From Baaleninema simplex PCC 7105 (GTDB taxonomy: Bacteria > Cyanobacteriota > Cyanobacteriia > Cyanobacteriales > Geitlerinemataceae), in the NCBI RefSeq assembly GCF_000332355.1, contig NZ_KB235961.1, forward strand, positions 41,918 to 91,023: a DNA stretch of 49,106 nt, given 5' to 3'. Numbering within the stretch: the first letter of the stretch is position 1; every line of letters begins with the position of its first letter. Positions 19,850 through 21,244 of this stretch are shown piece by piece. The notes beneath the pieces were generated by a model. The model was given only the letters and a program-made list of their open reading frames with translations. It had not been told where the DNA came from and did not search any database. A program made the position numbers and the translations under genes.

Positions 19850-21244
19850 ATGAAAAAACTAATTAATTTTAGCATGACGCTAATTTTAGCGTTGTCTATT
19901 AGTCTTTTAGGCATTGGAGATGCCTCAGCAACCACATTAAAAGTCGAACTGTATCCGTGGGTTCCTCGGATCGACCAATTTGAAACTGCCATCAAAGCCG
20001 AATGGGCAAACGTTCGACCTGATGTTGATTTAGAGTTCATTTCTTCGAGTTCCGATCCGAGCCTATCATGGGATGGAGGGTATCATACCGACCCTTCCCC
20101 AGACGCGGATGTGTATGTGTTCGATGCCATGTTTTTTGACTACTTTCGCAATAAAAACTTGCTCGAACCCATACAGGCGAGTGAAATCAACAATTTGAAC
20201 GACTTCGTTTCCTACGCGATCGATGGAGTTCAAGTCAATGGAACCTATTACGCCATTCCCCAACTCGGCTGTGCGAATATCCTGTTTTATCAAAAAGGGG
20301 ATACTGCAATTGCCAAGGCAACGAACCTCAGTGAAATTAAAAATGAGTTGTGCTCTTGTAGCTATACCAGCGAGATTCCGCCCGATCGTCGAGGTATCAT
20401 GCTCGATATGGTGGGTAGCACGACCAACGCTTCTCTTTATATCGACATTGCCCATAGCTTGACCGGACAATATCCCTTTCCATTACCTTGGAACCAATCG
20501 CAATTGAACGCCGAGGCGATCGACAATATGCAAGAGTTGCTCGCCATGTCAAGCTATGAGAATGCAACCGATCCAGACGGTTCGATTAAAGCCTACGAAC
20601 GAGCCGCATGGTTTAGTGACGGTTGGGGACGCGCACTCATGGGCTATACCGAAGCCATGTCAAACATGAGTGAGAAGACGCGGCAAAACATTGGCTTTAA
20701 AGTCATGCCGCTTTCCAATGAAGACGAATCCTATCCCGGAGTCTTCTATGCTGATGTCATTGGGGTGAATACGACCACCGAACAGCGGGGAACCCGCGAC
20801 TTAGCGGTTCAGTTAGCCAATACAATGGCAGCCTCCACCACGATGGTCGCCAGTATTGGTGCAGATGCCAGCAATTCCTATCCTCAGTATTTGATGGCCA
20901 CTCGTCCCAGCGTCTTCAACACCCTGAAACAATCGTTCCCACTGTATGGAGATATGTTTAGCCTCATTACGGATAACAATCCCATTATGTTCAAGGTGAA
21001 CGAGCAGTCTCGTACCTGGCTCGGCGAAATGGCCAGCGAGATTCGGACTGACGCGAGGGAGGATTATTCTTGCGGGTGCGATTATAGCTCGAGCCAATTG
21101 ATTCCTAACAACAGTGCGGCGGCGGCAATTTGCGAGGCGACCTGTAGCGATCGTGGTGGCTGGAGCGGTCAGTGGACGAATGCATACCCGGCGGCGGAAA
21201 AACCAGGAACCTCTGTTTGCGGTTGCAACGCCTGTTCTTTCTGA
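19850..21244 (+). CDS. Secreted thiaminase I with lectin-like C-terminal domain
   Basis: Residues 1-27 form a signal peptide (hydrophobic run then DASA). Residues 28-400 follow thiamine pyridinylase (thiaminase I). TLKVELYPWVPRIDQF opens it, PQLGCANILFYQKGD holds the nucleophile Cys141, and ALMGYTEAM holds the likely base Glu268. In the family this periplasmic-binding-protein-like enzyme replaces the thiazole of thiamine with another nucleophile and so destroys vitamin B1. Residues 405-464 are an extra tail with seven cysteines (CGC, CEATC, CGCNAC) and GGWSGQWTN, which resembles the mannan-binding MVL domain of Microcystis viridis lectin. The enzyme call is strong; the lectin call is by motif. 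No thi gene or TPP riboswitch is visible nearby. Confidence 0.88.
   Translation: MKKLINFSMTLILALSISLLGIGDASATTLKVELYPWVPRIDQFETAIKAEWANVRPDVDLEFISSSSDPSLSWDGGYHTDPSPDADVYVFDAMFFDYFRNKNLLEPIQASEINNLNDFVSYAIDGVQVNGTYYAIPQLGCANILFYQKGDTAIAKATNLSEIKNELCSCSYTSEIPPDRRGIMLDMVGSTTNASLYIDIAHSLTGQYPFPLPWNQSQLNAEAIDNMQELLAMSSYENATDPDGSIKAYERAAWFSDGWGRALMGYTEAMSNMSEKTRQNIGFKVMPLSNEDESYPGVFYADVIGVNTTTEQRGTRDLAVQLANTMAASTTMVASIGADASNSYPQYLMATRPSVFNTLKQSFPLYGDMFSLITDNNPIMFKVNEQSRTWLGEMASEIRTDAREDYSCGCDYSSSQLIPNNSAAAAICEATCSDRGGWSGQWTNAYPAAEKPGTSVCGCNACSF

What the first reader, a model, noticed from the sequence alone, without database searches (positions are those of the whole stretch)
19850..21244. Thiaminase I homologue fused to an MVL-like mannan-binding domain
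The first 400 residues match thiaminase I well, including the nucleophile Cys141 in PQLGCANILFY and Glu268 in GYTEAM, plus a signal peptide. The extra 60-residue tail has the CGC, GGWSGQWTN and SVCGC spacing of cysteine-rich relatives of Microcystis viridis lectin. An exported vitamin B1 destroyer tethered to a glycan-binding domain in a cyanobacterium would be a new architecture. It could target glycan-coated competitors or grazers, or anchor the enzyme to the producer's own sheath, and may matter for thiamine loss in water bodies.
Basis: partly seen in the sequence, partly recalled or inferred. Interest (0 to 1): 0.85.

Follow-up and report, generated by a model that had tools for sequence, protein, structure and literature searches.

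The report
Exported vitamin B1-splitting enzyme with lectin-derived tail
A cyanobacterium carries a gene for a secreted-type vitamin B1-splitting enzyme with a small tail descended from a sugar-binding protein; the same two-part design occurs in other cyanobacteria and in soil and marine bacteria, and this host seems to lack one gene for making the vitamin itself.

Summary
ORF 19850-21244 (+) is a secreted-type thiaminase I: TIGR04541 445 bits (cut-off 175), fold match to 4kys (Z 50.1), Cys141 and Glu268 invariant in 21 aligned proteins. The 60-residue tail is homologous to MVL but is a single, diverged, cysteine-rich copy: 27.3 bits alone (cut-off 25), 23.0 in the whole protein. Tails of Microseira and a KSB1 MAG bridge it to canonical MVL.

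The architecture is not peculiar to this gene: I found it in 22 genomes (seven cyanobacteria counting this one, nine Burkholderiaceae, six others). My paper searches turned up no description of the fusion, but I read only passages of few papers.

Glycan binding is untested; the tryptophan aligned with MVL Trp13 (role recalled) is missing.

New here: the host has no detectable ThiC or thiamine pyrophosphokinase but keeps ThiD, ThiE, ThiG and ThiL, so it looks like an auxotroph for the B1 pyrimidine. Salvage is my preferred role. Antagonism is a close rival: in Microseira the gene sits inside an NRPS/PKS cluster, and 9 of 13 tailed hosts have ThiC.

Verdict: new variant of a known kind; moderate interest.

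The parts
19850..21244 (+). Tailed thiaminase I gene, 464 codons plus stop
19850..19930 (+). Putative Sec signal peptide, residues 1-27 (MKKLINFSMTLILALSISLLGIGDASA), no lipobox pattern
   Evidence: read by eye; lipobox pattern absent; not tested with a signal-peptide program
19934..21049 (+). Thiaminase I catalytic domain, residues 29-400
   Evidence: TIGR04541 matches residues 19-391; structure match 4kys over model residues 29-405, Z 50.1, rmsd 1.5
20270..20272 (+). Codon of Cys141, predicted nucleophile
   Evidence: invariant in 21 of 21
20651..20653 (+). Codon of Glu268, predicted activating base
   Evidence: invariant in 21 of 21
21071..21241 (+). Cysteine-rich MVL-derived C-terminal module, residues 408-464 (seven Cys)
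21110..21226 (+). Stretch matched by Pfam PF12151 (MVL), residues 421-459

Best explanation
The gene encodes an exported thiaminase I of a subfamily that carries a C-terminal module descended from a single MVL (Microcystis viridis lectin) repeat. Step 1 (well supported by homology, not assayed): after export, Cys141, activated by Glu268, attacks the pyrimidine of extracellular thiamine, expels the thiazole and passes the pyrimidine to another nucleophile. Step 2 (inferred): the cysteine-rich tail is a retention or targeting module that holds the enzyme on a glycan surface - the producer's sheath, a neighbour or detritus - rather than letting it diffuse away. Step 3 (inferred, preferred role): the host, which keeps ThiG, ThiD, ThiE and ThiL but has no detectable ThiC, uses it to get the pyrimidine half of vitamin B1 from thiamine or its analogues. 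My own odds: step 1 about 0.95; tail is MVL-derived about 0.9; tail holds the enzyme on a glycan about 0.5; salvage as main role about 0.45.
For: Catalysis; for CcThi1 mutation of the matching Cys and Glu together abolishes activity (PMC10499793, passages). Tail: PF12151 matches 15 of 21 members of A2 at E <= 0.01 (the call does not name them, I take them to be the 15 tailed ones); a profile of 15 tails plus five MVL repeats finds MVL 1zhq at 3.2e-15; the tail is about as conserved as the core (48-66% identity to the window tail in 12 of 14 relatives, 41% and 36% in the other two), with pN below pS in all 13 pairs compared. Salvage: ThiC absent in the host although 109 of 114 good genomes among 120 sampled from the order have it; ThiG, ThiL, ThiD and ThiE matched; TPK found in 0 of 14 tailed hosts. 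P. thiaminolyticus, another thiaminase I producer, also lacks thiC but has thiD and thiE (PMC5627462, passages). Thiaminase I salvage in B. thailandensis is reported by Sannino 2018 (seen only as cited in PMC10147936). All 8 Burkholderia thiaminases over the cut-off have the tail.
Against: 9 of 13 tailed hosts searched do have ThiC, including 5 of 6 cyanobacteria, and some of the four without it are MAGs of unknown completeness. Another ThiC-less genome of the same family (G001) has no thiaminase over cut-off. TPK is also missing in 4 of 4 related cyanobacteria without a thiaminase, so its absence is the background. No thiamine gene was among the 18 neighbours of the 14 tailed relatives scanned. 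Thiaminase I transfers the pyrimidine to a nucleophilic co-substrate, thiaminase II to water (PMC10147936, passage), so free HMP needs water or a second enzyme. ThiC could lie in an assembly gap (97.9% complete, 8 contigs). A profile of 13 tails without the two MVL-like ones reaches 1zhq only at E 0.24, and Foldseek of the tail model gives 1zhq at E 0.22, prob 0.90. Most tails have lost the MVL Trp13 position.
Confidence: 0.45

Rival explanations
1. Antagonism: the enzyme starves thiamine-dependent neighbours (fungi, oomycetes, algae, grazers, bacteria); the tail docks it on glycan-coated cells.
For: In Microseira wollei the tailed thiaminase gene lies between NRPS and PKS genes on the same strand, with two glycosyltransferase genes after them and a MATE transporter gene on the other strand. 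A secreted myxobacterial thiaminase I stops Phytophthora by removing thiamine (PMC10499793, passages). Scattered distribution across phyla and lower GC3 than four neighbours (53.4 against 60-64) fit an acquired trait.
Against: Among the 18 neighbour genes scanned for the 14 tailed relatives only the two of Microseira are of biosynthetic-cluster type; usually one or two neighbours per locus were scanned. A producer without ThiC would also be removing a vitamin it may need. No target is known.
Confidence: 0.35
2. The tail is not a lectin any more: an MVL-derived, cysteine-stabilised cap for stability, dimerisation or interaction with the producer's own envelope, with no sugar binding.
For: Seven Cys columns are conserved in 14 of 15 aligned tails (six of seven in L054), while the five canonical MVL repeats aligned have two or four Cys; the Trp of G-x-[LI]-W is lost in 13 of 15; only one copy, where MVL has two.
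Against: G-Q-W-T is kept in 10 of 15 tails, including the window's, and both Trp of the G-W-x-x-x-W stretch in 15 of 15; the tails of L052 and L054 keep G-x-I-W.
Confidence: 0.4
3. A solute-binding protein that only resembles thiaminase I.
For: SBP_bac_1 matches weakly, 21.1 bits against a cut-off of 26, and thiaminase I shares the fold of such proteins.
Against: 445 bits to the thiaminase equivalog, Cys and Glu kept, Z 50 to thiaminase against 29.4 to the best sugar-binding protein.
Confidence: 0.03

Closest known systems
Thiaminase I / thiamine pyridinylase BcmE (TIGR04541; 2thi, 4kys)
   Same: Whole catalytic domain, Cys and Glu, export signal; 34-35% identity in the structural alignment
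   Different: The solved Paenibacillus and Clostridium enzymes align only up to about residue 394-405 of this protein, and none of the Paenibacillus loci read here has the tail; the Paenibacillus genes lie in thiamine/bacimethrin operons (PMC5627462, passages), this one does not
Thiaminase I of Burkholderia
   Same: Same tailed architecture in 8 of 8 genomes found; activity in B. thailandensis supernatant is in print (PMC10147936, passages)
   Different: The core of B. cepacia LK29 is 55% identical to the window's, its tail 48%.
MVL, Microcystis viridis lectin (PF12151; 1zhq, 1zhs)
   Same: Aligned G-Q-W-T and spacing; weak fold match
   Different: One copy instead of two, cysteine-rich, Trp13 position lost, fused to an enzyme
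MVL fused to an endonuclease/exonuclease/phosphatase domain in two unnamed cyanobacteria (L034, L035)
   Same: MVL domain attached to an enzyme domain
   Different: Different enzyme; MVL lies on the N-terminal side and is canonical
CcThi1 of Corallococcus and other myxobacteria (PMC10499793, passages)
   Same: Secreted thiaminase I with Cys/Glu; antagonist role shown there
   Different: Myxobacterial ones reported as mostly lipoproteins; CcThi1 18-19% identical to 2thi and 4kys, on a separate branch in that paper's tree

Membership tests
Thiaminase I (TIGR04541) | Curated model score over cut-off | tested here: met
   445.5 bits, cut-off 175
Thiaminase I (TIGR04541) | Catalytic Cys and Glu | tested here: met
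   Cys141, Glu268 invariant in 21 of 21
Thiaminase I (TIGR04541) | Thiaminase I fold | tested here: met
   4kys Z 50.1, rmsd 1.5, 363 residues; model mean pLDDT 89.2
Thiaminase I (TIGR04541) | Export from the cell | tested here: inconclusive
   signal-peptide features by eye and absence of a lipobox pattern; no predictor or experiment
Thiaminase I (TIGR04541) | Base-exchange degradation of thiamine | not testable with these tools
   needs enzyme assay
MVL family (PF12151) | Curated model score over cut-off | tested here: inconclusive
   27.3 bits for the tail alone, 23.0 for the whole protein, cut-off 25; 10 of 10 other tails tested, of 14, pass
MVL family (PF12151) | MVL fold | tested here: inconclusive
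   Foldseek 1zhq first of 8 hits, prob 0.90, E 0.22, TMq 0.51; tail model mean pLDDT 78.7
MVL family (PF12151) | Two tandem repeats as in the lectin MVL | tested here: not met
   one copy; MVL chain shows two
MVL family (PF12151) | G-P-[LI]-W sugar-site motif (role recalled, no call) | tested here: not met
   Q-L-I-P in the window tail; the motif Trp is present only in L052 and L054 of 15 tails
MVL family (PF12151) | Mannan or N-glycan core binding | not testable with these tools
   needs glycan array or calorimetry

The most novel reading that the evidence does not exclude
A cyanobacterium that has lost ThiC lives by 'extracellular vitamin splitting': a thiaminase docked by a lectin-derived tail on glycan surfaces of neighbours, prey or its own sheath cuts the thiamine leaking there, and the cell rebuilds its own B1 from the pyrimidine half with ThiD, ThiE and ThiL. 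The tailed enzyme would be a glycan-targeted vitamin-harvesting module passed between cyanobacteria and proteobacteria.
Probability: 0.15. Interest if true: 0.8.

Novelty: new variant of a known kind. Interest (0 to 1): 0.5.

Why it matters
[quoted passage not shown] A conserved, lectin-derived tail on the enzyme in cyanobacteria and in Burkholderia points to surface retention as part of its function, which tail deletion can test directly. A thiaminase I in a host that appears unable to make the pyrimidine half of B1 gives a genetic test of salvage against antagonism. It also adds cyanobacteria, several of them mat-formers (recalled), to the places where thiamine may be destroyed.

Tried and rejected
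Considered and rejected: a plain solute-binding protein (see rivals); a tail that is only chance cysteine-rich sequence (shuffle control, and 22 conserved copies); an IS- or MITE-borne gene - the palindrome on both sides of it is a genome-wide dispersed repeat with 99 exact copies, so it says nothing special; loss of ThiC shown by synteny - the thiC surroundings differ between two relatives, so no empty site could be looked for. A TPP riboswitch as an extra marker: none in the host, which fits the missing thiC but is not independent. ThiC absence as a general feature of tailed hosts: not so, 4 of 13. Tail against PDB by single sequence: no hit up to E 10. Tail against plasmids by tblastn: no match; whole protein against plasmids: 3 records, matched no further than residue 401. 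One broad six-term paper search (7,144 papers, 12 listed, none of these with the word thiaminase) was uninformative. Papers on MVL sugar-site residues and on B. thailandensis salvage were not held, so those residue roles are recalled. The window's exact place in the tree is weakly supported (no starred set holds it). The tail/no-tail label needs two changes on the 31-row tree, and none of 200 bootstrap trees needs only one, because three distant tail-less cyanobacterial proteins form the outgroup; among the 28 true thiaminases the six tail-less ones form one branch (100/99).

Rows dropped: of 24 loci, L062 and L064 (same match as L061) were not examined singly; L059 and L063 (close to L055, L058) were also left out of alignment A2; L041 and L046 could not be searched for ThiC (not held). 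L054 was left out of the pN/pS count. Neighbours of the 14 tailed loci were Pfam-scanned only in part (18 proteins).

Full report
What is there. ORF 19850-21244 on the + strand encodes 464 residues. It begins with a typical Sec signal peptide by eye, without a lipobox pattern. Residues 19-391 match TIGR04541, thiamine pyridinylase, at 445.5 bits (cut-off 175). PDB thiaminases 4kys and 2thi match at 8.6e-70 and 3.5e-66. The AlphaFold2 model (mean pLDDT 89.2) superposes on 4kys with Z 50.1, rmsd 1.5 over 363 residues; the best non-thiaminase, a sugar-binding protein, has Z 29.4. Cys141 and Glu268 are invariant in 21 of 21 aligned proteins. For a distant thiaminase I, mutating both corresponding residues abolished activity (PMC10499793, passages read).

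The tail. Residues 408-464 form a module with seven cysteines. Pfam MVL (PF12151) scores 27.3 bits for the tail alone (cut-off 25) and 23.0 in the whole protein, so by that model it is borderline. Three further results make homology likely. Ten of ten other tails tested (of 14) exceed the cut-off, the KSB1 MAG L054 at 59.2 and Microseira L052 at 49.4 bits. PF12151 matches 15 of 21 thiaminases at E <= 0.01, as many as are tailed. Against a profile of five canonical MVL repeats, the window tail scores 13.4 bits, matched or passed by 1 of 3000 shuffled tails; 14 of 15 tails score 13.4 or more, L044 only 7.6, a score that five shuffles reach. Results on the other side: a profile of 13 tails, without the two canonical-looking ones, reaches MVL 1zhq only at E 0.24, and Foldseek of the tail model (mean pLDDT 78.7) lists 1zhq first but at E 0.22, prob 0.90. 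The strong 3.2e-15 hit used an alignment that included MVL repeats. The module is a single copy. The Trp of the G-x-[LI]-W motif is missing in 13 of 15 tails, while G-Q-W-T is kept in 10 of 15, the window's among them. That these residues line the sugar site is recalled; papers with the detail were not held. I therefore call it an MVL-derived module and not a proven lectin.

How widespread. A scan of the 84,980-species genome collection with an alignment of three thiaminases gave 24 loci. Fourteen carry the tail: Moorena, a Crocosphaera MAG, two Symploca, Okeania and Microseira among cyanobacteria; Paraburkholderia, Burkholderia cepacia LK29 and Breoghania; and MAGs assigned to Binatia, Alphaproteobacteria, Ectothiorhodospiraceae, Deltaproteobacteria and KSB1. 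Eight of the ten others were looked at one by one and have none. Only two degenerate peptide patterns were used, and the Burkholderia sweep below found seven more genomes, so the true number is larger. In the genus of the B. cepacia hit, 8 of 65 genomes have a thiaminase over the cut-off, and all eight carry the tail. With the window that makes 22 tailed genomes. In the window's own phylum the enzyme is rare: 1 of 386 sampled genomes over the cut-off, the host itself. PF12151 passes in 5 of 386, and the host's only match is this tail. Thiaminase I in 'aquatic cyanobacteria' is already mentioned in print (PMC10499793); another paper reports none in the Microcystis genomes it queried (PMC12637900, one passage).

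Evolution. On a 31-row tree of the catalytic core, the six tail-less thiaminases form one branch (100/99) within the 28 true thiaminases; the two proteins whose tails keep the canonical motif, L052 and L054, lie next to it (82/92). A single gain or loss of the tail is the simplest reading, although ten inner branches are weak. Tail and core are about equally conserved between the window and its relatives, and pN is below pS in both parts in all 13 pairs compared, though pS is often saturated. The tail is therefore under selection. The gene's third-position GC is 53.4% against 60-64% in four neighbouring genes, compatible with acquisition.

The host's own vitamin B1 pathway. ThiC (TIGR00190) gave no match in the 97.9% complete host genome, while 109 of 114 good genomes among 120 sampled from its order have it. 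The TPP riboswitch was not found either. A joined query of E. coli ThiE, ThiG, ThiL and part of ThiD matches all four in the host, ThiE weakest (30% identity, 6.4e-14). TPK (PF04263) gave no match. On paper the cell cannot make the pyrimidine half but can assemble B1 if given it. This does not generalise: ThiC is present in 9 of 13 tailed hosts searched and in 4 of 8 tail-less ones. TPK is absent from 14 of 14 tailed hosts searched but also from 4 of 4 related cyanobacteria without the enzyme, and present in 6 of 8 tail-less hosts, so it mainly follows taxonomy.

Gene surroundings. In the window the gene stands alone: upstream a 240-base partial copy of the DAHP synthase gene (18122-18361, about 90% like 22524-22765), downstream a DM13 protein and DAHP synthase. 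None of the 18 neighbours of tailed genes scanned is a thiamine gene. In Microseira wollei NIES-4236 the tailed gene lies between an NRPS-methyltransferase gene plus a PKS gene on one side and an NRPS-PKS gene ending in a thioesterase on the other, all on one strand, followed by two glycosyltransferase genes; a MATE transporter gene lies beyond on the other strand, and a TnpB-like transposase gene precedes the cluster.

Reading. The catalytic step is nearly certain. The tail most likely holds the enzyme on a surface; whether through sugar is open. For the role, salvage of the pyrimidine fits this host best and has precedent: P. thiaminolyticus is a thiC-less thiaminase I producer with thiD and thiE (PMC5627462, passages), and salvage by B. 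thailandensis thiaminase I is cited in PMC10147936 (passages; the original, PMC6122001, was not held). Antagonism fits the Microseira cluster and the Phytophthora work. I prefer salvage by a small margin for this host and expect the role to differ between lineages.

Novelty. Full-text searches for thiaminase with mannan-binding (none), with lectin and cyanobacteria (two listings of unrelated reviews), with cyanobacteria and nonribosomal (none) and for thiamine pyridinylase (one listing, on bracken) showed no description of the fusion. Of the 21 papers holding thiaminase I and cyanobacteria I read passages of two (PMC10499793, PMC12637900); most subscription journals are not held. Anyone running Pfam on these proteins could see the fusion, so I rate it a new variant of a known kind.

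Noticed in passing
window 18122-18361 and 22524-22765: A 240-base stretch of the DAHP synthase gene is duplicated (89-91% identical, same orientation), so the thiaminase and DM13 genes sit between a fragment and the full-length gene; possibly a footprint of insertion or duplication.
   Followed up: partly
window 13824-13848, 19538-19562, 21401-21425: Repeated palindrome CCCCGGCATCTCCAAGATGCCGGGG, 99 exact copies in the host genome, none of the reversed control: a dispersed repeat.
   Followed up: yes
window 18427-18465, 19461-19502, 19582-19623, 19731-19772: Several direct and inverted copies of a repeat containing GGTGCATCTCA upstream of the gene.
   Followed up: no
L034:1309-2781, L035:1378-2496: Canonical MVL domain fused to an endonuclease/exonuclease/phosphatase domain in two unnamed cyanobacteria.
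   Followed up: partly
L005:1429-2706, L006:1426-2673, L007:1420-2685: Divergent thiaminase-like proteins in other cyanobacteria (83-93 bits to TIGR04541, under the cut-off) that keep IPHLLCG and GYSER at the Cys and Glu positions; may be a separate enzyme group.
   Followed up: partly
L052 with L110 and L111 (Microseira wollei contig, about 18-47 kb): NRPS/PKS cluster with a tailed thiaminase gene inside; product unknown to me.
   Followed up: partly
L060: Thiaminase I gene on a contig assigned to a Nitrosopumilaceae archaeon MAG; could be real transfer or a binning error.
   Followed up: no
host genome G000 and relatives G001, G031, G232, G420: These five genomes, at least 90% complete, have no ThiC match; G000, G001 and G031 keep ThiE, ThiG, ThiL and ThiD, so pyrimidine auxotrophy may recur in cyanobacteria.
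   Followed up: partly
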